Below, piece by piece: positions 10,437 through 61,544 of a stretch of DNA of 64,000 nucleotides. Both the position numbers and the translations under genes were made by a program. Source of the DNA: Gymnothorax reevesii (Eukaryota; Chordata; Actinopteri; Anguilliformes; Muraenidae); contig CM056588.1 of assembly GCA_029721435.1 (NCBI GenBank), forward strand, positions 40,565,430-40,629,429, written 5' to 3'. Numbering within the stretch: position 1 is the first letter of the stretch; each line of letters starts with the position of its first letter. The notes below the pieces were generated by a model that made no database searches, was not told where the DNA came from, and saw only the letters and a list, made by a program, of their open reading frames with translations.

Positions 10437-11027
10437 AAAGATGTATACAGAAAGTGGAAAATATATAACGGAAATATACCAATTGGAACACGCAGTGTGA
10501 CCAAAAAGAATTAAGCTGTTTTTGATAGGGTTACCTCTCGCACAAAATCGGATATTTAATTTCCTTCAAAGTGAAAGCAACATCTATGAAATGTTAATCT
10601 GCAAGTTTAGGTTGGTCTTTTTTTTTTTTCTTTGCCGTACGTTAAGCTGATTATTAGGGAAACGTATAATTTTAAACATTCAACCGAAGGGTTTTTTTTT
10701 TTTTTTTTGCTACAGGTATTATTTGTAAATGTTACTTGTATCCTTGAAAACATGAGCAAAATTTGACAACTTTTGGTATAGTTTTTAACTTTATTTATTA
10801 TTGCAAAGTAGTTGATAATGTTACGTTACTAAAAGAGCCATACGCTTGTTCTCCGGCTTGATATTAAACTGTAAAACCCCCCGAGCTTAACATTTCAAAC
10901 GAGTGGTGTCCGGCCTCAGTGCCCAGCTGGGTAACGTGTCCCATTAATTTTGACTTTGAGTCTCAGTCAGAACGTCCTTCCCTCAGCAATGGTAATTTTA
11001 CTGTCCATACATGAGCATACACAAGCA

Positions 11028-14589: not shown

Positions 14590-15740
14590 AGTGCTGTGAA
14601 AAAGCACTTGCCCCTTTCTTGATTTCTTCCATTATTGCTTATTTGTCATATTTAAATGCTTAGATTGTCCAACTAATTTTAATGCAAGAAAGGCAATGTG
14701 AGTAAATACAAAATGCAGGTTTTGAATGATCATTTCATTTATTGAAGGCAAAGAGTTATTGAAAATCTGTATCACACGAGAAAAAATAATTATCTAGTGA
14801 CATATTGTGCCATGCTTTGCGGCAACAACAATCAAATGTTTGCGATGACTTTTTTTGAGTTTTTTTTTTCATCACTGTGATGGAACTTTGGCTCACTATT
14901 GTTTGCCAAATTGATTTAATTCAGCCACACTGGATTGTTTTTGAGCATGAACTCCATTTTAGCGGTCATGCCACAGCATTTCAATAGGATTCAGATCAGG
15001 ACTGACTTGGCCACAACAAAATGTTAATTTTGTATCTTTTGAGCCAATCAGCTGTGGACTTTTTTCTGTGCTTCAAATTGTTGTCCTGCTACATAACCGA
15101 ATTATACTTGAGCTGTTGGTCACAAACTAATGGTCAGACATTCTGCTTCAAGATATTTTGGTAGATAGCAGAATTGATGGCTCCATCAATTATGGTTAGT
15201 CGCCCGGGTCCAGAGGCTACAAACCAGCTTCATACCATCACACTACCACCACTGTGTTTGACTGTTAACATGATGTAACGGGACCGCTTTCTTCCACAAA
15301 GTTCCACTTTTACTCATCAATCCACTGAATATTTTTCCAAAAGTCCTGAGGGTCATCGTGATGTTTTTTGGCAAACGTGAGATCAGCCCTTGTGTTCTTT
15401 TTGGTCAGCAAGTGGTTTTTGCCTTGCAGGTCTCCCGTAGGCACCATTTTTTCCCAGTCTCTTAGTTATTGTGGAATCATGAACACTGACCTTTTCAGAG
15501 TAAAGTTCGGCCTGCAGTTCATTAGATTTTAATCTGGATTCCTTGGTGACCACTGGATGCATCTTCTCTGTGTTTTGGGAGGAACTTTGATTGGCCAGGC
15601 ACTCCTGGGAAGGTTTGTAGATAATGACGCTCACCATAGTTTGCTGGAGTCCCAGGGCTTTAGAGCAGAAAGGTGGTTTACCCAAGCATGCAACTGCAGA
15701 TGCTTCTAGCGATGCAAAATAGATTTCAGACATCATTGCA
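14590..15740 (-). pseudogene. Decayed Tc1-like transposon
   Basis: The left end carries CAGTGCTGTGAAAAAGCACTTGCCCC, a terminus typical of a fish Tc1 family. Downstream, minus-strand sequence resembles a Tc1 transposase gene (the plus strand shows stretches such as GGATTCAGATCAGGACTGACTTGGCC and CCTGAGGGTCATCGTGATG), but it is full of stops and frameshifts. No matching right terminal repeat was found, so the 3' limit is approximate. Confidence 0.65.
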
Positions 15741-25793: not shown

Positions 25794-25795
25794 TA

Positions 25796-27305
25796 TACTC
25801 AGCAACAAAAGTTTCTGTGACACCATTTATGTGTATGTTATAAATGACACGCAAAGATCTCAATGCAATCAATATGTTTATTTAACAGTAGAAACACTGA
25901 CTTTTCAGTGCCAACGTCACTCAAAACGAAAAATGTCATTTTCATGCGTCATGAAGCACTTGTCTGACGTCTAACCAATTGTGACCTTCACACTTCAATA
26001 CCGGGTGTGACTTCCTCGTGCCATGATGCAAGCAACGCATCTCCGGCGCATGGACCGAATCAGATGTGCCAGAAATTGCTGTGGGATGTCATTCCAAATC
26101 TGACGTAAACATTGTCGCAATTCCTGGAGTGTAGCTGGCGGGTTATCCAACCGCCGCAAACGTCGATCCATCTCGTCCCAAAGATGCTCGATTGGGGACA
26201 TGTCTGGAGATCTGGCTGGCCATGGCAGGACATTGACATATTGTTGCATCAGATACTGCTGTACAATCCTTGCAACGTGTGGTCTGGCGTTATCATGTTG
26301 CAGCGTTATTCCGGGACCATGTTGCATCAAAAACGGTACCACCAATGGCCGTAGCACTTCATCGCGATATCTTTGACCTGTCAGATTTCCATCAATAACA
26401 AGCAAATCTGTTCTGTTTCTAGCCGTGATCCCTCCCCAAATCATGACACTACCACCTCCAAAACGATCAAATTCCTGAACACAGTTGTTGGCATAACGTT
26501 CTCCACGTCGACGGTATACACGTAAACGACCATCATATCGGTTAAGCATGAATCTTGATTCATCAGTGAAGAGTACAAGATCCCACTGACGTTGGATCCA
26601 CCGTCGATGTTGTTGTGCCCACTGTAGACGCAGTCGTCGGTGTTGTACTGTGAGTATTGGACGTCTTGCTGGCCGACGTGGGACAATGCCAAAATGACGG
26701 AGACGGCGACGGATTGTCTGTGCAGACAGTCGCCTCAAACCAGGTATCGTTCTTGCAGTTATGGTTGCAGGTTGGAATCGATTTCGGAGATGGGTTGTTC
26801 GAATCCAGTTGTCCTGTCTGGGAGTGGTTACTCGTGGACGGCCGCTGCGAGGACGGTCTCTGACATGTCTTGTCTGCTGATGACGCTGCCATAAGTTCCA
26901 AATGGTGTTTCGGTGGACATTCAGGAGATGAGCAACTTCCCTCTGCGAGGTTCCGGATTCAATCATCCCAATGGCCCTCCACCGATCATTTTCAGACAGT
27001 CTTGGCATTTAGAGGGTAGAGTTCCTGATCCGAAATGGCTGTGTTTTCGATAAGTGATGCTTCCGTCGTTCATCAGGCACAATGTGAACATTCCAAAAAT
27101 TCTCCTCTTTTATTGCCATCCATAAGCATGATTTATGCACATTTTCACGTGCAAAGTCATTTTCTCGCATTTTCATGATTTCCATTTCAATGTTGTGTTT
27201 ACGTGTACTGTTTCAGTCTGATATCACCATGTATGACAATTTCATAATTGCGTTATGAAAAATAATTAACAATATTGGTGTCACAGAAACTTTTGTTGCT
27301 GAGTA
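25796..27305 (-). mobile_element. Intact Tc1-type transposon
   Basis: A 1510-bp element bounded by perfect 30-bp terminal inverted repeats beginning TACTCAGCAACAAAAGTTTC. It is flanked by the TA target duplication at 25794-25795 and 27306-27307. It encloses one uninterrupted transposase on the minus strand and has no internal damage that I can see. Perfect terminal repeats plus an open frame point to a young, possibly still mobile, copy. Confidence 0.95.
25995..27008 (-). CDS. Tc1-family DD34E transposase, full length
   Basis: A 337-residue DNA transposase that would act in the nucleus, binding the element's TIRs and carrying out cut-and-paste transposition into TA sites. The N-terminal 120 residues form the two helix-turn-helix units of the paired-like DNA-binding domain (start MPRLSENDRW), with a GRPR-type motif at 56-59 between them. 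The catalytic domain has D149 in the context LFTDESRF, D239 in QHDNARPH, and E274 in SPIEHLW. There are 34 residues between the last two, the DD34E signature of Tc1. A glycine-rich box FGGGSVMIWGG lies at 183-193. The length equals that of active Tc1 transposases, and the frame has no stop or frameshift. Mirror frames on the other strand are shadows. Confidence 0.95.
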   Translation of the reverse strand: MPRLSENDRWRAIGMIESGTSQREVAHLLNVHRNTIWNLWQRHQQTRHVRDRPRSGRPRVTTPRQDNWIRTTHLRNRFQPATITARTIPGLRRLSAQTIRRRLRHFGIVPRRPARRPILTVQHRRLRLQWAQQHRRWIQRQWDLVLFTDESRFMLNRYDGRLRVYRRRGERYANNCVQEFDRFGGGSVMIWGGITARNRTDLLVIDGNLTGQRYRDEVLRPLVVPFLMQHGPGITLQHDNARPHVARIVQQYLMQQYVNVLPWPARSPDMSPIEHLWDEMDRRLRRLDNPPATLQELRQCLRQIWNDIPQQFLAHLIRSMRRRCVACIMARGSHTRY

Positions 27306-27307
27306 TA

Positions 27308-30894: not shown

Positions 30895-33800
30895 TAATGA
30901 TAATAATAATAAAATTATTATTTTGGAAACAACATTTTGTTAAAGCATGTTGAAGTTGGTCACTGGCATTTTATTGTTATTAACGCGAGGGCTGTGACAA
31001 GCTCATTTGCAATTCGGCTTTGTTTCCTAACGGTTTGTTTTTCTCTTAACAACACAGCCTGATAACGAAGACCTGAACTATTCGTTATAGACGCGGCACA
31101 TATTACTGTATTTTATCTTAGAACTGCGATACTCTTAAAGAAAGAGTGCTTTTGCGAATTATAACCCTCTCTTTCTACCCTACTGACCGCAGGCAAAAGA
31201 GAAGCGCGGCTGGACCCTGAACAGCGCTGGGTATCTCCTGGGGCCGCGTGAGTTCTCCTTGCGAACACATATTTAGGATTCACCACAATTTTTTTTTTTA
31301 AACATTTTTCTTAAATTCGTAATGAATTATTAGTTTTATACTTTCGCATATTTTTTGTCTCGAAATGTTTTGCTTGGTATCAAAAAAATCTACATTTTAT
31401 TATGTTCATAAATTTTTTAGTTCCGATTTTCATTTTTTATTCTACTTCCTATTTTTTCAGCATAAGGTTTAACTACATGTCAGCATATAGCCTTGCCTAC
31501 ACTGACCAAGCAATATTTTAACTGGTGTTTTAAGTGTGCCTAGTCTTCCCTCTTTTAAGGTTATCACGCTCCTCTCTGGAGGAAGCAAATCTGATCTGAG
31601 GAACATTGACCAGTTTTGCTGTAGTTATCGGTGGTGCCGATGGCGCTAAATTAACGCCATCGGCGGGGGGAGACTCTTTGATGGGAGAGCATAATCCGAT
31701 TGTTAATTCAGGATTTAACCGGTTATTCGAAAAATTATGAGTGCTACTTAACATGGCTTAAAGCCCAGCAAAAACTTTTGAGCTGAGATCGTGCATACAA
31801 ATTTTGCTGGCAGTAGGCGTACGTATTGGCGACTTCGTGCAGAATGGCTGTCTATAGAACTCAAGCAAGTAAGGCCAGTTTTCGATGTTTTTGTCATTTA
31901 TCATTATCAGTCAGCTTCTTTTATCATGAATGATTGGGTAATAATATAGGTGGCTCTCCCTTTCGTTTTTCTCTATGGTGTCGAGCTCTTGGAGAGCCGC
32001 TGGTTTGCCGGTGCTTTGTCATTTTCCGGCAGAAGCCGCCTCAGTAGTCGGTGTTTTAAGATCAGGTAAAATGCCATCATCCATGTGTTTCAGGTCGTAT
32101 TGAGCACCTAATACAGATAAAGGACAGTCCAAGTGCAAGGGGGCGAGAGGACCTGCTTAACGAATGTAAGATAGCACCAGCAGGTTATTTGCGTCAACAG
32201 AATGCGCCGCTGTCTGTGTCCATCCTATTCGATGTATGTTGGGCAGAACTGAACGTCGTGAAAGGCGAGGCCCTGATTTTGAGTCTGGGCTTAAAACAGA
32301 GCAGTAACACGTTTTAACACAGTCTTTTGCTTTGCGATCAATTCATATTAATTAAAGAGCATTTAATTGCTGAAGTTTTGTTATTTAGGTTTTCTAGCCT
32401 GCTGGAATCTAGGCCGATGAGAACTTTGTTTAACCAGAATATGGTACTATATTTAGAGGTTATTAGCGAGCTTAGCTTATATGATCAGGCAATCAGGTCT
32501 TCTTAAATATTCATAAGTTTCTATTCATTTGATTAGACAAAGCAGGGGCCATCACCCTGTAGCAATGCGCTGACAAGGCCCTTGCCCAGGAGCTCAATGG
32601 CTGTTCTGATCTTACAGTGAATATGCGGGGTCTTGAACCAATAGGTTTTCAGTGTGTCCACCACATAAATACACTTACAATTATTTCTACTCCGGCTTGA
32701 AGATGATGCTGAGTCGGTTTCATTAATTGGATTTCAATGATCCGCTTGCCCCACCTGTTAAGATGGGTGAAAAACAATCATGTACTTCATTGAGGTCACA
32801 ATCTTTTGGCCTCCTTTGAAACCTGGCCATGCAGCCCTGATGAAAACTAGCATGTCCATCAGTGCTGCATAACACTGATGGAGCTGCACAGCTGCAGTCT
32901 TGCCCTTCGGTTCTTCCAACGCTCATGTCTTTGTTCCATGTTGGGAATCCCATCATCTCTCTGTCACTCTCATCTGTTTGTTGGGGGTAATTCTCCAATA
33001 TGTATGTCTTTGTTCTTCACGTTCTTCACATGTCCAGCCTTCTCGTTTTGGTCTGTTGGGGCATTTTGCGTTCCTACTTTTGTTCAGTTTGAAGTATGTT
33101 CAAATTAGCCATAGCATATCTGTAACTCAAAGTGAAACCTGTGGGGCGTTTCTTTTTGTTTTTGGTTTCATTTTGATTCCAAGAGCCCATTTTTAAAGAC
33201 ATTCCTCAGGACTTATCCAGAGACAGTGTAAGGTAGACCATTTCCTGCTTACGTAGACCAACTGCTGTTTGCAGAGGACTTGCATCTCTGACTGAGACAG
33301 CAGGAGGTATCGTTTAGCATGGCTGACCTGCATGTTTCGTGTTTGATGGACAGATGCCATTGACAGCCACAGAGTGCTCAGCAACAAACATGGACTCGCT
33401 GGGAAGAGAGACCTGCCCATTGAGGATGAGACCAAATCAAGTAAGCGCTTATGACCCAAGCCAAAACTGGAGAAACAGCCCTATGCTCCTTTGCCATGGC
33501 TAAGTACTTGCTTTGCCTGCTGAAATGTGTCACCTTTCTCCTTGCCATCCAGTCTGAACAATAGCATTTACTTTAAAATGCGGCCTGCCAAAACTTATTG
33601 CTGGAGAAATACAAGCCCATTTCCAATCATCTCTATATTCCATTCAAAATATCCCAAAGACATCAAATTTTGAAACTGAGAATTAAAAAAATATATGTAT
33701 AGATTCATTTTAAATTTGATGCCAGAAGATTTTTTTTTCCATTCTTGCTTGCTGCAGGATTTCAGCTGCACAACAGTTTTGTGGCCTCCTTTGTCCAATT

Positions 33801-35758
33801 TTTCATTTCATAGTGTGCTAGATATTTTCAGTGGGGGACAAGTCTGGACTGGAGGCAGGCTAGTTTAGTACCGAAACTTATTTTAAAATACAAATCCATA
33901 TTGTTGTAATATGTCCAGAATATGATTTGGCATTGTCTTGCTGTAATAAGCAAAGCCTTCTCTGAAAAATACATCGTCTGGATGGACTGTATATGCTGCT
34001 CCAAAACCTTAATATCATTCAGCACTAATGTTGTCCTTACAGTTTTGCAAGTCATCCATGCAACGTGCACTGAGTGCTGATAACAAGGCAGAGGGTCTCA
34101 CCCCTCTAACGCCGAGAGGACGTGGTGTTCATGATTTCAATAAAATAGTAGCTCATTTTGACTGGTGAGAACACAGGACAGTTTTCCACTTTGTCGCAGT
34201 CGATCTGACGAGAGCTTGGGCCCAGAGAAGCCGGTAGCATTTCTGGATCTTGTTTATACATGGGCGTAGCTTTACACGGTAGATTTCTAACTTGCATTTG
34301 CGGATGCAGTGACGAAGACTGTTCACCGACAGTGGGTTTCGGAAGTGTTCCTAATCCAATGCAGTGATTTTCATGACAAAATCCTGTCTATTTTTAAATG
34401 CAGTGCCACCAAAGGGCCGGAAGTAATGGCCATTCAGTTTTGTTTTTTGGCCTTGCCCCTTGCACACAGCGATTTCTCTGGATTCTCTGAATCTTTCAAT
34501 GATATTATGTACTCTAAATGATGAAATCCCCAAATAATTTTCCAATTTTTAATATATTCACATTCAGTCTCTCACAGAGTGCAGAATGGTAAAGCCCTCA
34601 CCATCTTTATTTCTGAAACACTCAACCTTTCTGGGATGTTCTTTTTATGCTCAATCCTGTTGCGAACTACGCCCATTTTGACTGAAGCACATTGGAAACC
34701 TTAAATGAATTCCATTGTGTGAAAGATGCAATGCGTGTGCGCGTGTGTACTTGTGTGTATTAGACACATGCTGCCCATCTCTCTTAACACACACATCCTA
34801 TCTGTTTGAACAGCTGGCCTGAGAACAGCGGACGAGACTGTATTACACACCATTGTCGACTTCCTGTCTTACCTGAAGCTGAAAGGTAAGGCACTCCCAA
34901 GATAATTATGAATATACCTCAGTTAAGTGAACATGGATCTAATTGTCCACCTGTAGCCAGCCCCGACTTGCATTGGTATGGCTGAGTCTAGATACCCTAC
35001 CAATAGACCCTGCTACATACTCGAATAGTGCCTTACCAGATGTCAGACTGTGGAGCACATCCACCCACTGGTACAGAGCCTTAACGATTAGCAGGCCCAT
35101 CCACACACTGGTACTCTGCCTTAACAGATACCACAGGATGGGGCCCATCCTCGCTCTAGAACAGTGCTTTAATAGATGCTTGACTGTGTAGCCCATCTGC
35201 AACCTGGAACACAGCCTTAACAGATACCAGACAATGAGGCTAATCCACACTCTGGAACATGCTCCCTTAACAGATAATTTGCTATCTGGGACATCTGCAC
35301 ATAGGAACTTAGCTGTAGTTACTGGACCATGGGGCCTATCCACACTTTGGCACAGATCATGGGGCTAATCCACACATTGGTACGGAGCCTTAACAGATAC
35401 CAAACCATGAGGCCCATCGACACGGCAGCACAGAGCTTCAATAGATACCAGGTCATGGGACCCATTTACACGGTGGAACAGAGCCTTAAGGGATACCAGA
35501 CCGTGGGACAATCCATACATTGCCAAGGTGTTTTAGCACATACCCGACCATAGGGCCTATCCAAACACTGATACAGCGCCTGAGCAGAAAGCAGGTGATG
35601 AGGCCCATCCATACCACAGAACAAAGCCTCAACAGGATGAGTTACCCAGCAGCCATATTTTCATTCTTATTCTTGTGCTCTTGACCTTTTTTTCAGAAAT
35701 GGGAGCCCTTGATAACGTCTCCCCTTCGCTCACATCAGAGGAGCTGGGCCAGCCTTAG
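30541..35758 (+). CDS. gal: gal: galanin/GMAP prepropeptide, complete
   Basis: Precursor of the neuropeptide galanin, which is secreted by neurons and endocrine cells and acts on GALR receptors. Exons 30541-30621, 31193-31247, 33354-33440, 34814-34885 and 35697-35758 join with matching phases into 118 codons plus TAG. Residues 1 to about 25 are a signal peptide (MQKCIGVVCAFLISCAALSE). KEKR, ending in a dibasic site, precedes the mature peptide GWTLNSAGYLLGP, then HAIDSHRVLSNKHGLA, then GKR. The Gly is the amide donor, so the product is a 29-residue amidated galanin. The remainder is GMAP, with the family motif ETVLHTIVDFLSYLKLKE followed by MGALD. The receptor-binding N-terminus is unchanged. 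A CRE and TATA box lie upstream, and ppp6r3 is the upstream neighbour, as expected. No frameshift or stop; a functional gene. Confidence 0.97.
30622..31192 (+). other. gal intron 2 with (AAT)n microsatellite
   Basis: A 571-bp intron. The tract at about 30836-30918 is AAT repeats with a few interruptions. Confidence 0.85.
31193..31247 (+). CDS. gal: gal coding exon 3: KEKR site and galanin N-terminus
   Basis: Acceptor GACCGCAG, donor C/GTGAGT. It encodes AKEKRGWTLNSAGYLLGP plus the first base of the His codon. This is the invariant receptor-binding part of galanin and the clearest gene signature in the window. Confidence 0.98.
31248..33353 (+). other. gal intron 3 (2.1 kb)
   Basis: AT-rich at first. 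No additional exon or clear transposon was recognised. It may hold intronic regulatory sequence, for which I have no direct evidence. Confidence 0.6.
33354..33440 (+). CDS. gal: gal coding exon 4: galanin C-terminus, amidation site, GMAP start
   Basis: Acceptor GATGGACAG, donor A/GTAAGC. It completes His and reads AIDSHRVLSNKHGLA, the GKR processing and amidation site, then DLPIEDETKS of GMAP. Confidence 0.96.
33600..34560 (-). pseudogene. Decayed Tc1 copy in gal intron 4, same family as the element at 43578-46190
   Basis: On the minus strand, LGISSFRVHNIIERFRESRE matches LGISSFTVRNIVKRFRESGE of the 43.6-kb element. Further matches follow in order, including CTTCTCTGGGCCCAAGCTC and the region around the second catalytic Asp (near 33940) and the SPIEN motif (near 33840). 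Many stops and indels. Termini not defined. Confidence 0.75.
34814..34885 (+). CDS. gal: gal coding exon 5: GMAP core
   Basis: Acceptor TTTGAACAG, donor AAAG/GTAAGG. It encodes TGLRTADETVLHT and then IVDFLSYLKLK, the conserved amphipathic GMAP segment (mammals have TIIEFLSFLHLKE). Confidence 0.95.
35001..35640. repeat. Diverged minisatellite in gal intron 5
   Basis: About a dozen irregular units of 45-60 bases share CCTTAACAGATACCA, GGGGCCCATCCACACACTGG and close variants. The long frames here come from the repeat. Its first 155 bases recur at 37761-37925. Confidence 0.8.
35697..35758 (+). CDS. gal: gal terminal coding exon with stop
   Basis: The acceptor TTTTTTTCAG ends at 35696. The exon completes Glu, reads MGALDNVSPSLTSEELGQP and stops at TAG 35756-35758. 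The M/A-GALD motif after LKLKE matches the end of GMAP in other vertebrates. Confidence 0.94.
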
Positions 35759-40742: not shown

Positions 40743-40812
40743 CATGAGGAGGACGCGAGGAAGCATTAGTTATCATGAGAGAGGAGGGCATGAGGAATTA
40801 TTAGTTATCATG
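40743..40812. repeat. Left part of a 35-bp minisatellite, cut off by an insertion
   Basis: Two units containing TTAGTTATCATGAGAGAGGA and GCATGAGGAA. The array stops at CATG 40809-40812 and resumes in register at 42434. Confidence 0.92.
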
Positions 40813-42433: not shown

Positions 42434-43421
42434 CATGAGAGAGGAGGGCATGAGCAAGCGTTTGTTATCATGAGAGAGGAGGACATGAGGAAGTATTAGT
42501 TATCATGAGAGAGGAGGACATGAGGAAGCGTTAGTTATCATGAGAGAGGAAGACGTGAGGAAGCGTTAGTTATCATGAGAGAGGAGGGCATGAGGAAGCG
42601 TTAGTTATCATGAGAGAGGAGGACATGAGGAAGCGTTAGTTATCATGAGAGAGGAGGGCATGAGGAAGCGTTAGTTATCATGAGAGAGGAGGGCATGAGG
42701 AAGCGTTAGTTATCATGAGAGAGGAGGACATGAGGAAGCATTAGTTATCACGATAGAGGAGGACATGAGGAAGCATCAGTTATCATGAGAGAGGAGGACA
42801 TGAGGAAGCATTAGTTATCACGATAGAGGAGGACATGAGGAAGCATCAGTTATCATGAGAGAGGAAGACGTGAGGAAGCATTAGTTATCATGAGAGAGGA
42901 GAGTGTGAGAGAAAGCATTAGATATCATGAATGAGGAGGACGCGAGGAAGCATTAGTTATGATGGGAGAGGAGGACGTGAAGAAGCATTAGTTATCATGA
43001 GAGAGGAGGACATGAGGAAGCATTAGTTATCATGAGAGAGGAGGACATGAGGAAGCATCAGTTATCATGAGAGAGGAAGACGTGAGGAAGCATTAGTTAT
43101 CACGATAGAGGAGGGCATGAGGAAGCATTAGTTATCATGAGAGAGGAGGGCATGAGGAAGCATTAGTTATCATGAGAGAGGAGGGCATGAGGAAGCATTA
43201 GTTATCATGAGAGAGGAGGACATGAGGAAGCATTAGTTATCATGAGAGAGGAGGGCATGAGGAAGCATTAGTTATCATGAGAGAGGAGGGCATGAGGAAG
43301 CGTTAGTTATCACGATAGAGGAGGACATGAGGAAGCATCAGTTATCATGAGAGAGGAAGACGTGAGGAAGCATTAGTTATCATGAGAGAGGAGGGCATGA
43401 GGAAGCATTAGTTATCATGAA
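42434..43421. repeat. 35-bp minisatellite array, about 28 units
   Basis: The unit is TTAGTTATCATGAGAGAGGA followed by GGACATGAGGAAGCA. Variants (GGGCATG, AAGACGTG, CACGATAGAGG) recur in blocks, suggesting higher-order amplification. Not coding. Confidence 0.97.
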
Positions 43422-43965
43422 AGATATGCTCCCATCTAGATGGTATTTTTTTCCAGAAATGTTCCAGCATTTTCCAGTAAAGCAATATCAAACCACATTC
43501 TGCATGGATTACAATTACACTGGCTGCATACGCTGTGAATGTGGGCACTAGATCCACTTACCTATAGGCTTGATATACAAAACCCAAAACCAGTGAAGAT
43601 TTACACATTATGTAAATCGGAAATAAAAACAGAATACAATTTGCAAATCCTTTTCAACCTATATTCAATTGAATACACTGCAAAGACAAGTTACTTTATG
43701 TTCGAACAGGTAAACTTTGTAATTTTTTGCAAATATTAGCTCATTTGGAATTTGATGCCTGCAACATGTTTCAAAAAAGCTGGCACAAGTGGCAAAAAAG
43801 ACTGAGAGAGTTGAGGAATGCTCATCTAACACTTATTTGGAACATCCCACAGGTGAACGGGCTAATTGGGAACAGGTGGGTGCCATGATTGGGTATAAAA
43901 GCAGCTTCCCTGAAATGCTCAGTCATTCACAAACAAGGATGGGTTGAGGTTCACCACTTAGTGAA

Positions 43966-45950
43966 CAAATGCGTGAGCTGATTGTCGAACAGTTTAGAAA
44001 CAACATTCCTCAACGAGCTATTGCAAGAAATTTAGGGATTTCATCATTTACGGTTCGTAATATTGTCAAAAGGTTCAGAGAATCTGGAGAAATCACTGCA
44101 TGTAAGCGACAAAGCCGAAAACCTACATTGAATGCCCGTGACCTTCGATCCCTCAGGCGGTACTGCATCAAAAACCGACATCAGTGTGTAAAAGACATTA
44201 CCACATGGGCTCAGGAACACTTCAGAAAACCACTGTCAGTAACTAAAGTTCGTCGCTACATCTGCAAGTGCAAGTTAAAACTCTACAATGCACCCAGAAA
44301 CGCTGCCAGCTTCGCTGGGCCCAAGCTCATCTAAGATGGACTGATGCAAAGTGGAAAAGTGTTCTGTGGTCTGACGAGTCCACATTTCAAATTGTTTTTG
44401 GAAACTGTGGACGTCGTGTCCTCCGGACCAAAGAGGAAAAGAACCATCCGGACTGTTATAGGTGCAAAGTTCAAAAGCCAGCATCTGTGATGTTATGGGG
44501 GTGTATTAGTGCCCAAGGCATGGGCAACTTACACATGTGAAGGCACCATTAATGCTGAAAGGTGATATGGAATCAGTTAGACACCAAAAGCGGGGTGAAG
44601 GGAAATGAGGATTTATTAAACAAAAAACAACAGGCACGAGGGCCAACGAAAAACTTGGCCCAAAGGGTTGCAAAAGAAACTAAAGTATGCTGCACAGAGC
44701 TATAAACAAAGAATGCAAAACGACAAAAAAAAAACAAAAGGCACTGGAAACTCCAGGCGAGAAGATCAAGAAAAATAAATAACAAGACTAAATATATATA
44801 CACAAAACAAGAGGCTAGGACGAGACTTGAAACTAGAAAAGCTAGGGAACTTGACAACAAGAACTTGGCTACACTTGCACATGCAATGAGACGCGAGACA
44901 CTGTCTGCCAGCCAACTTCCACCGCATCCAGATAAAGGCTTGGAAATCATGACATGAGGGGTAACACCTGGAGAGAGAGAAACAAGAGGCATGGCAAGAT
45001 CAAGACATGGACAGAGATTGGATGACATGACCTGCTCATTAAGAGAATGAGCGTGCTCAGCTTAAGTACCAATTAAGTATGCAGCTTGGAAGCAAGCATG
45101 AATGTTAAGAACAGAAAAGCACAGCAAGATCTTGAAATAGCAAAGCCGGAATCATGACAATAAACTCCCTGTCTAAATTAGTAGTATTAGTAATGTGCCT
45201 GTCTAAGAATTACACCAACCCAGTGAGTGTTAGTAAATGTTAGTAACTTAAAAACAGTTAATTGTCAATTAAGCTTAGAAAGGCCCGAATCCAGCACAGC
45301 ACAGAAGGAAGGGGAAATACCAAAGCCAACCATAGCTCAGAAATGTGCAACAACGAAGGCACGGGGCGGAACGCAGACAAGCGGTGGAGTGGCATGGCAG
45401 ACCTGGCAAAAACAAAAACATGGCAAAGTAAAAACATGGACATGGAACATGAATTATGAAATGAGTAATCCTAAACAAGAAACTGTTAAAACTGTGACAT
45501 GAACATGAACTATGAACTATGGAATCTTGGAACATGAAACTGTTAAAACCATGAATAATACTGTTCTGGCCAAGGCCAGAACCCTGGAACACAACAGAAA
45601 GGTACATACAGGTTTTGGAGCAACATATGTTGCCATCCAAGCAACGTCTTTTTCATGGACGCCCCTGCTTATTTCAGCAAGACAATGCCAAGCAACATTC
45701 TGCACGTGTTACAACAGCATGGCTCCGTGGTAAAAGAGTGCGGGTACTAGACTGGCCTGCCTGTAGTCCAGACCTGTCTCCCATTGAAAATGTGTGGCGC
45801 ATCATGAAGCGTAAAATACAATAACGGAGACCCCGGACTGTTGAACAACTGTACATCAAGCAAGAATGGGAAATAGTTCCACCTGAAAAGCTTCAAAAAT
45901 TTGTCTACTCAATTCCAAAACGTTTACTGAGTGTCGTTAAAAGGAAAGGC
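43966..45950 (+). pseudogene. Broken Tc1 transposase (interrupted by frameshifts and an LTR)
   Basis: The N-terminal part (from 43969) has the helix-turn-helix IPQRAIARNLGISSFTVRNI. After a frameshift near 44280, the first catalytic Asp appears in WSDESTF, then the box SVMLWGCISAQGMG. A second frameshift ends this frame at 44540. Past the LTR, the frame resumes at 45603 with the second Asp in QQDNAKQHSA and the Glu in SPIENVW (34 residues between, DD34E), then a stop codon near 45823. At least two frameshifts, one nonsense change and one insertion make it dead. It is a different family from the intact Tc1 at 25.8 kb. Confidence 0.9.
44563..45596 (-). mobile_element. 1034-bp solo LTR nested in the Tc1 element
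   Basis: It starts TGATATGGAATC and ends GGAACACAACA, with the 6-base duplication GAAAGG at 44557-44562 and 45597-45602. Read on the minus strand it runs TGTTGTGTTCC to CCATATCA, with AATAAA about 55 bases before the end, as in an R-U5 boundary. Excising it rejoins the Tc1 transposase sequence (GAAAGGT/ACATACAGG). No retroviral gene is present. The class is not determined. Confidence 0.8.
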
Positions 45951-46190
45951 GATGTAACACAGCGGTAAAAAGGCCCCTGTGCCAACTTTTTTGCAATGTG
46001 TTGCTGCCTTTAAATTCTAAGTTAATGATTATTTGCAAAAAATATATAAAGTTTCTCAGTTTGAACATTAAACATCTTGTCTTTGCAGTGTATTCAATTG
46101 AATATAAGTTGAAAATGATTTGCAAATCAATGTATTCTGTTTTTATCTACGATTTACATAACGTGCCAACTTCACTGGTTTTGGGTTTTG

Positions 46191-60742: not shown

Positions 60743-61544
60743 CAGGGCCAGTATTCAATTCAATACTTAGTCCAAGTAAAACTTAAACTTGGCTAAGAAA
60801 AATGCTTAATTTGTATTCAAGATGCGTCCAAGACATTTACTTAGTCAGACGATATCGAAGAAAATTACTTAGCCAAAATTATGACTAATTGACTGAGGGC
60901 AGCTTTTGCTTCAGCAATTTTTTTTTTTTTTTTTACGTTGATCGTCTGTCTGGGATCTGGACGCCTGGGAGATGTGGGTGGCGTCTCCATCTGTGCGCTG
61001 AAAAGCATCCTGTGGTGTAGAAATGCAGGGCTGTGCGCAGCCTATCCACGGGTGCGATTGGATGATTGGTATTGCCCTTGGGGGCGATGTCATCCTCCAT
61101 GAACTGAGTTAGGCGCAGGATCCCTTCCCTGTTAAAAAGATACCTTTTGATAAGTGCTGTATCATTTTACGTGTCGACTGGATGTAAACGCTGGTTTGCC
61201 AAATGCTGACGAAGTTCACGTTGATGGTTGAATTGAAGACGGAGGAGAGCAGCCATGATGATGCGTCTTGTCCTGACCAATGATTCTTTGAGAATGATCT
61301 TTTACTTAAGTGTCCCATCGGGACAAGACAAAATACTTAATTGTACGCACTTGAATACCAAAAATACTTCAGTACTTACATTTTTACTTAATATGACCGA
61401 GAATTTCATTTAGAATAAGTAAAATTCTCAGTCAAAAACTCAGCAAAATACTCAGCCAAAAGATTATTTGAATACCAACTTTGACCAATTTTTACTTCAG
61501 TAAAGCACTTAAGTATTGAACTGAACTCCAGCCCTGATGCCAAA
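60743..61544 (-). mobile_element. PIF/Harbinger-type relic with TIRs
   Basis: The left end reads GCATCAGGGCCAGTATTCAA. The reverse complement of the right end reads GCATCAGGGCTGGAGTTCAG. The minus strand from about 61125 to 60985 can be read ILRLTQFMEDDIAPKGN, then NHPIAPVDRLRTALHFYTTGCF. This resembles the N-terminal region of Harbinger transposases (..PI.P...LL.ALRFYATG.F). The rest of the enzyme and the Myb-like partner are missing. Confidence 0.6.

What the first reader, a model, noticed from the sequence alone, without database searches (positions are those of the whole stretch)
25796..27305. Intact, possibly active Tc1 transposon between ppp6r3 and gal
Perfect 30-bp inverted ends, TA target duplication and an unbroken 337-residue DD34E transposase with all catalytic residues. 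Most fish Tc1 copies, including the two or three relics in this same window, are riddled with stops. An intact copy implies recent invasion and possibly current activity. Tc1 families are known to move horizontally between fishes and their parasites such as lampreys, which would be a natural explanation to test.
Basis: partly seen in the sequence, partly recalled or inferred. Interest (0 to 1): 0.8.

Follow-up and report, generated by a model that had tools for sequence, protein, structure and literature searches.

The report
Young Tc1 transposon burst in moray
An intact jumping gene in a moray eel genome is one of about 3,400 nearly identical copies that spread in one recent burst; its kind is well known, and where it came from is still open.

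Summary
The element is real: a complete Tc1-type (DD34E) DNA transposon, window 25796-27305, with perfect 30-bp ends and an open 337-aa transposase. The genome matches the published Reeve's moray assembly in length and scaffold N50. The copy is not special: there are about 3,400 (6,805 end matches and 3,381 ORF-centre matches at up to 3 mismatches). In a consecutive sample, 55 of 57 are full length and 34 of 57 keep a 337-aa frame; mean distance from consensus is 0.62% and the copies form a star. This is one recent burst, roughly a million years ago at a zebrafish rate, without abundant miniature derivatives.
Two corrections. The youngest sampled copies already carry mutations, so current activity is not shown.
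Horizontal arrival is plausible: no older generation was seen, CpG depletion is absent, and among 120 listed relatives only one exceeds 77% identity. It is not demonstrated, because other vertebrate genomes could not be searched. The lamprey link is not supported: a primer test says this is not the published lamprey/teleost family.

The parts
25794..25795 (.). left target-site duplication, TA
   Evidence: empty sites of copy L060 show the insertion adds 1512 bp = 1510-bp element + 2-bp TA lying outside TACTCAG...CTGAGTA; assigned to this copy by analogy
25796..27305 (.). complete DD34E Tc1-type transposon, 1510 bp, beginning and ending with TA
   Evidence: 55 of 57 sampled copies align over at least 1,500 bases
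25796..25825 (+). left terminal inverted repeat, 30 bp
25995..27008 (-). transposase ORF, 337 aa plus stop
26604..26996 (-). DNA-binding region, residues 5-135 (HTH_23 under its cut-off, HTH_Tnp_Tc3_2 over its cut-off; GRPR motif at residues 56-59)
26127..26576 (-). DDE_3 catalytic domain, residues 145-294, triad D149/D239/E274
   Evidence: nearest solved structure Sleeping Beauty catalytic domain
27276..27305 (-). right terminal inverted repeat, 30 bp
27306..27307 (.). right target-site duplication, TA
   Evidence: as for the left TA

Best explanation
This is an autonomous cut-and-paste DNA transposon of the DD34E/Tc1 kind in the Reeve's moray genome. By family knowledge, its transposase binds the 30-bp ends, excises the element with the DDE triad, and inserts it at an AWA-TA-TWT-like site, duplicating TA. 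Shown here: complete anatomy; about 3,400 copies with matching numbers of ends and centres; a star-like, neutrally decaying sample about 0.4-0.6% from consensus; empty sites with a single TA. Inferred: one burst about a million years ago, largely over; the window copy is probably still competent in sequence but is a derivative with 4 amino-acid changes, none at an invariant or nearly invariant position; probable horizontal origin from an unknown donor.
For: Anatomy. Copy number: 6,085 exact 27-nt ends and 0 reversed-pattern controls; 6,805 ends and 0 controls at up to 3 mismatches; 3,381 ORF centres and 0 controls at up to 3 mismatches. Ends per centre is 2.01, so end-only miniature derivatives are not abundant. 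Sample of the 57 elements behind the first 100 listed end matches: 55 of 57 full length, 34 of 57 with a 337-aa frame, mean 0.62% and maximum 1.32% from consensus. Neutral decay: syn/non/stop 77/225/16 against 73/222/23 expected, standard deviations 7/8/4. Star shape: 48 of 398 variant states shared; of the 47 other than site 1341, 29 lie at CpG. Empty sites of L060: the 40 listed paralogues all span the site; 37 are 4 bases and 3 are 5 bases shorter than the joined flanks, and 7 of 8 fetched read ACACATATGTG. CpG observed/expected 0.94 in the element against 0.54 in the window.
Against: No activity was measured. No sampled full-length copy is free of non-CpG substitutions, which argues against strong present activity. 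The consensus was built from 30 copies chosen for similarity to the window and differs from the family majority at site 1341. The rate behind the age is a zebrafish figure, not a moray one. 6 of 53 sampled junctions depart from outer TA on both sides, four by one extra base and two lacking the outer right TA, and 2 of 30 window-like copies depart too; these are unexplained. One window paralogue of the L060 site is two bases shorter still.
Confidence: 0.92

Rival explanations
1. The family was inherited vertically at low copy number in eels and amplified recently; no horizontal transfer took place.
For: Tc1-like sequence seems abundant in this genome: a loose first look with a 75% relative gives 140,280 candidates, of which 119 were scored, and four relics lie in the window. 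A young burst alone does not need a transfer.
Against: No older generation was seen: the end matches with 1-3 mismatches (720 of 6,805) fit about 0.4% divergence alone, and the 119 scored host matches to the outgroup P0003 all have 75-76% identity, which I take to be this family. That list is saturated by the young copies, so old relics could be hidden.
Confidence: 0.35
2. The element moved between fishes and lampreys as the published Group 1 Tc1 did.
For: Same superfamily, similar size, thousands of young copies, as in sea lamprey (PMC3516227).
Against: Six of six Group 1 primers miss the family consensus by 6-10 bases. The published consensus is 1,610 nt against 1,510. No moray is in Table 1 of species carrying Group 1 elements.
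Confidence: 0.03
3. The ORF is a domesticated host gene rather than a mobile element.
For: Intact frame of 337 aa.
Against: About 3,400 copies with TIRs, empty sites and neutral decay of the frame.
Confidence: 0.01

Closest known systems
Sleeping Beauty (DD34E/Tc1)
   Same: DD34E triad and TA duplication (recalled for Sleeping Beauty); top structural match 5cr4, 31% identity, also top by sequence
   Different: Sleeping Beauty-type elements have about 200-bp ends with internal direct repeats (recalled); here the ends are 30 bp and one search reported no such repeats
ZB of zebrafish (PMC7913693, passages seen)
   Same: young, nearly identical intact DD34E copies in a fish
   Different: ZB: 1,597 bp, 201-bp ends, 341 aa, 20 full-length copies; here 1,510 bp, 30-bp ends, 337 aa, about 3,400 copies
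Traveler DD35E (PMC7093834, passages seen)
   Same: about 1.5 kb, short ends (13-68 bp), recent invasion; Rhinella marina holds over 8,000 copies, over 2,000 intact
   Different: triad spacing 35 rather than 34; Traveler ends carry CAGTC (51 of 78) or CAGCC (23 of 78) at the TA, here TACT lies between the TA duplication and CAGC
Group 1 Tc1 of lampreys and teleosts (PMC3516227, outline, abstract, section 4 and part 1 of 2 of section 9 seen)
   Same: Tc1 superfamily, thousands of young copies
   Different: different sequence family by the primer test
Unnamed proteins P0001, P0002, P0003
   Same: P0001 differs from the family consensus at 2 of 323 residues; P0002 and P0003 are 77% and 75% identical to the window protein
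   Different: hosts unknown; P0001 may be the same or a related species

Membership tests
DD34E/Tc1 of the Tc1/mariner superfamily | DDE triad with 34 residues between second D and E | tested here: met
   D149, D239, E274; the two D invariant and the E in 90% or more of 52 aligned proteins
DD34E/Tc1 of the Tc1/mariner superfamily | TA target-site duplication | tested here: met
   empty sites of other copies with a single TA; outer TA on both sides in 47 of 53 sampled copies and 28 of 30 window-like copies
DD34E/Tc1 of the Tc1/mariner superfamily | terminal inverted repeats around one transposase ORF of about 340 aa, 1.3-2.4 kb in all | tested here: met
   30 bp, 337 aa, 1,510 bp; ranges from PMC7093834
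DD34E/Tc1 of the Tc1/mariner superfamily | Tc1-type DNA-binding and DDE domains | tested here: met
   HTH_Tnp_Tc3_2 and DDE_3 over cut-off
DD34E/Tc1 of the Tc1/mariner superfamily | transposition activity | not testable with these tools
   no assay possible
Traveler (DD35E) | 35 residues between second D and E | tested here: not met
   34
Group 1 Tc1 of lampreys and teleosts | 92.5-100% nucleotide identity to the Group 1 consensus | tested here: not met
   tested only through six primers: best 6-10 mismatches in this family's consensus; the full Group 1 consensus was not at hand
Sleeping Beauty/ZB-type long-end elements | about 200-bp ends | tested here: not met
   30-bp perfect ends; one search found one inverted pair, 42 nt with flanks
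Horizontally transferred transposon | patchy host distribution with identity higher than vertical descent allows | tested here: inconclusive
   no other vertebrate genome searchable; among 120 listed proteins one at 98% of unknown host, next 77%

The most novel reading that the evidence does not exclude
A previously undescribed Tc1 family entered the moray lineage horizontally about a million years ago, from an unsampled, perhaps invertebrate marine donor. It made about 3,400 nearly all full-length copies without shedding abundant miniature derivatives, and may since have passed between morays and animals linked to them by diet, such as sea kraits.
Probability: 0.5. Interest if true: 0.6.

Novelty: new member of a known kind. 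Interest (0 to 1): 0.43.

Why it matters
It is a clean, datable invasion of a vertebrate genome: about 3,400 copies, more than half of those sampled still coding, with many single-TA insertion sites to read. That makes the donor question testable by one similarity search of other eel, sea-snake and reef-animal genomes, and it offers a native short-ended Tc1 system to compare with Sleeping Beauty and ZB. As a type of event it is known (ZB, Traveler, lamprey Group 1).

Tried and rejected
Lamprey Group 1 identity was tested through the published primers and rejected for this element. One of the six primers has a 2-mismatch match elsewhere in the window (10968-10987), not followed up. Viral vectors: the six peptide patterns and the exact 27-nt end gave 0 in viral contigs. 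Prokaryote genomes: 9 stretches matched a pattern and 1 encodes a relative, 32% identical, in a mussel-symbiont assembly; not pursued. A strong TATATA target preference (47 of 53; 0.5-1.3% background) was my first reading; empty sites showed it to be the element's terminal TA beside the TA duplication, so it was dropped. A 4-bp duplication was rejected because the bases beyond the outer TA are not shared (72% A on the left, 66% T on the right).

Literature: seven searches. Exact end strings: 0 papers. Moray with transposable element and horizontal transfer: 0. Gymnothorax with Tc1 and transposon: 2, neither describing this family in the parts seen. Searches were read as listings; no title or abstract opening names a moray family, but most of those papers were not opened, so a description in them or in papers not held is not excluded. 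One search gave the moray genome paper.

The first alignment mixed strands and its divergence figures were discarded; one search repeats it oriented. The repeat at 61421-61460 with an end-like unit was read and looks like an unrelated simple repeat. NCBIfam gave IS630 over its cut-off and IS481 far under it. Rfam and tRNA scans of the window were empty.

Full report
What is there. The window carries a complete Tc1-type element at 25796-27305: a perfect 30-bp inverted pair (read; its 27-nt core found twice in the window and in 0 of 100 shuffles) around one minus-strand ORF of 337 aa at 25995-27008. Pfam finds HTH_Tnp_Tc3_2 and DDE_3 over their cut-offs. The triad is D149, D239, E274 with 34 residues between the last two. 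I aligned the window protein with 51 of the 120 listed relatives: D149 and D239 are invariant, E274 is present in 90% or more. The AlphaFold model (mean pLDDT 85) matches the Sleeping Beauty catalytic domain best (Foldseek E 2.8e-15), as does the sequence.

The host. Handle G000 has 2,173,976,663 bases. The published Gymnothorax reevesii assembly is 2.17 Gb with scaffold N50 112.89 Mb and 21 chromosomes (PMC10387071, outline, abstract and passages seen). Contig C8 is 112,885,341 bases, and the sum of C1-C8 crosses half of the assembly there (lengths; this assumes that contigs are numbered by size), so the N50 agrees. Window GC is 41.6% and the paper's 41.61%, of little weight. RAG1 from G000 is fish-like: 91% to an unnamed protein, 84% to Cirrhinus; it does not name the species. 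The identification rests on these numbers.

Copy number and completeness. The 27-nt end has 6,085 exact matches and no reversed-pattern control match; with up to 3 mismatches 6,805. A 34-nt piece of the ORF centre has 3,381 at up to 3 mismatches. Two ends per centre (2.01) means about 3,400 copies, about 5 Mb or 0.24% of the genome, and no abundant miniature derivatives. The first DNA search scored 40 of 164 candidates, full or nearly full length at 99-100%, but it is biased towards the window copy. For a set not chosen by similarity to the window I took every element behind the first 100 listed end matches (C1:0.7-40.9 Mb): 57 elements, 43 with both ends perfect and 14 with one, fetched. Of these, 55 of 57 are full length (at least 1,500 aligned bases; the other two are truncated), 34 of 57 have a longest frame of exactly 337 aa, and substitutions from consensus average 0.62% (range 0.26-1.32%). 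The sample leaves out copies with no perfect end, so it may slightly favour young copies.

Age and shape. Leaving out two shared variants and the two truncated copies, the 55 copies carry 0.54% substitutions, 0.42% at non-CpG sites. The ends give much the same: 720 of 6,805 have 1-3 mismatches, about 0.4% per base (my arithmetic). At the 4.13e-9 per site per year used for zebrafish in PMC7913693 (passages seen) this is about 1.0-1.3 million years; no moray rate was at hand. Frames decay neutrally: 77 synonymous, 225 non-synonymous and 16 stop changes against 73, 222 and 23 expected, with standard deviations 7, 8 and 4. The copies form a star: 48 of 398 variant states are shared, one of them (site 1341) by 53 of 55 because my consensus came from window-like copies, and 29 of the other 47 lie at CpG. 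No full-length copy has zero non-CpG changes (minimum 1, mean 5.7) and no pair differs at fewer than 6 sites. So the burst looks finished or much slowed. Element CpG observed/expected is 0.94 against 0.54 for the window, as expected for sequence that has not long been in a methylated vertebrate genome.

The window copy. It has 8 changes from consensus, 4 in the protein (R28L, C158Y, H257Y, R300C). None is at a column that is invariant or nearly invariant among the aligned relatives, though column 257 is N in 44 of 52. Elsewhere 2 of 57 sampled copies encode exactly the consensus protein, and both sit in a class of 42 of 119 listed host matches with an identical score (counted by eye). The window copy is thus a likely but not an outstanding candidate for activity.

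Where the element ends. I found TA outside that TA on both sides in 47 of 53 sampled copies and 28 of 30 window-like copies, and first took it for target preference. Empty sites decided it. Copy L060 sits in another repeat; joining its flanks while keeping one inner TA gives 242 bases. All 40 listed paralogues (of 1,435 candidates) align across the site at 97-98%: 37 are 4 bases shorter and 3 are 5 bases shorter. Of eight fetched, seven read ACACATATGTG and one ACACATATATG. The insertion therefore adds 1,512 bases: a 1,510-base element that begins and ends with TA plus a 2-base TA duplication. L078 against one 79% paralogue agrees without ambiguity; L060 against L002 agrees; L042 against three paralogues shows one base more; and a 95% paralogue of L060 in the window is two bases shorter than the rest. 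The target consensus becomes A-W-A-TA-T-W-T. The 6 departing junctions of 53 (four with one extra base, two without the outer right TA) are unexplained. For the window copy the assignment is by analogy.

Origin. Of 2,697 relatives in 5.8 billion proteins the best 120 are listed: one (P0001) is 98% identical, the next are 77% and 75%, the rest at most 64%. P0001 differs from the family consensus at 2 of 323 residues, and P0002/P0003 are the nearest neighbours in a FastTree tree of these 120 proteins plus the consensus (support 0.99). None of these three has a named host. Named relatives in the lists are chelicerates (Stegodyphus, Cordylochernes) and Hucho, at 38-52%. Viral contigs gave nothing with the patterns used. 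The 119 scored host matches to P0003 all have 75-76% identity; several are known copies of this family and I take the rest to be so. No second, older lineage nearer to P0003 is visible, but the young copies saturate that list. Absence of an old generation, high CpG and isolation of the sequence fit horizontal arrival; a vertically kept low-copy lineage that burst late fits too. I give horizontal arrival about 0.6 and cannot name a donor.

The lamprey idea. The published Group 1 elements of lampreys and teleosts are another family by a primer test: the six published primers have 6-10 mismatches at best in this family's consensus, and the paper's table of carriers has no moray (PMC3516227, outline, abstract, section 4 and part 1 of 2 of section 9 seen). 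Sea kraits hunt eels and have probably received several transposons from aquatic animals (PMC8872380, abstract, passages and the section of legends and tables seen); this element is not reported in what I saw, so the link is only a place to look.

Verdict. It is a new family of a known kind in an unusually clean recent burst. Comparable cases are known: ZB in zebrafish with 20 full-length copies and Traveler in Rhinella marina with over 8,000 copies, over 2,000 intact.

Noticed in passing
window 14797-15487, 33686-34533, 43957-44624, 45576-45962: Four broken or fragmentary Tc1-like transposase stretches of other families.
   Followed up: partly
window 10968-10987: One Group 1 Tc1 primer of PMC3516227 matches here on the minus strand with 2 mismatches (0 of 100 shuffles): perhaps a relic of another Tc1 family that one search did not pick up.
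   Followed up: no
window 44338-44563 and the repeat around L060: The repeat that L060 interrupts is itself Tc1-like and has at least 40 places matching the joined flanks at 97-98%; a 94.8% copy is in the window. It may be another fairly young Tc1 family of the moray.
   Followed up: no
window 42434-43424: Array of 28 copies of a 35-bp unit at 91% match, with a shorter 35-bp array at 40746-40812, close to Tc1 relics.
   Followed up: no
element site 1341 (consensus numbering): 16 of 30 window-like copies carry T where 54 of the 56 sampled copies that cover the site carry C: the window copy belongs to a minority subfamily.
   Followed up: partly
L042, L043, L050, L054, L068, L072 junctions: Four junctions have one extra base between the end and the outer TA, two lack the outer right TA: end cleavage may be slightly imprecise.
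   Followed up: partly
L088: A 32% Tc1-like match in a Bathymodiolus symbiont assembly, possibly host-mussel contamination.
   Followed up: no
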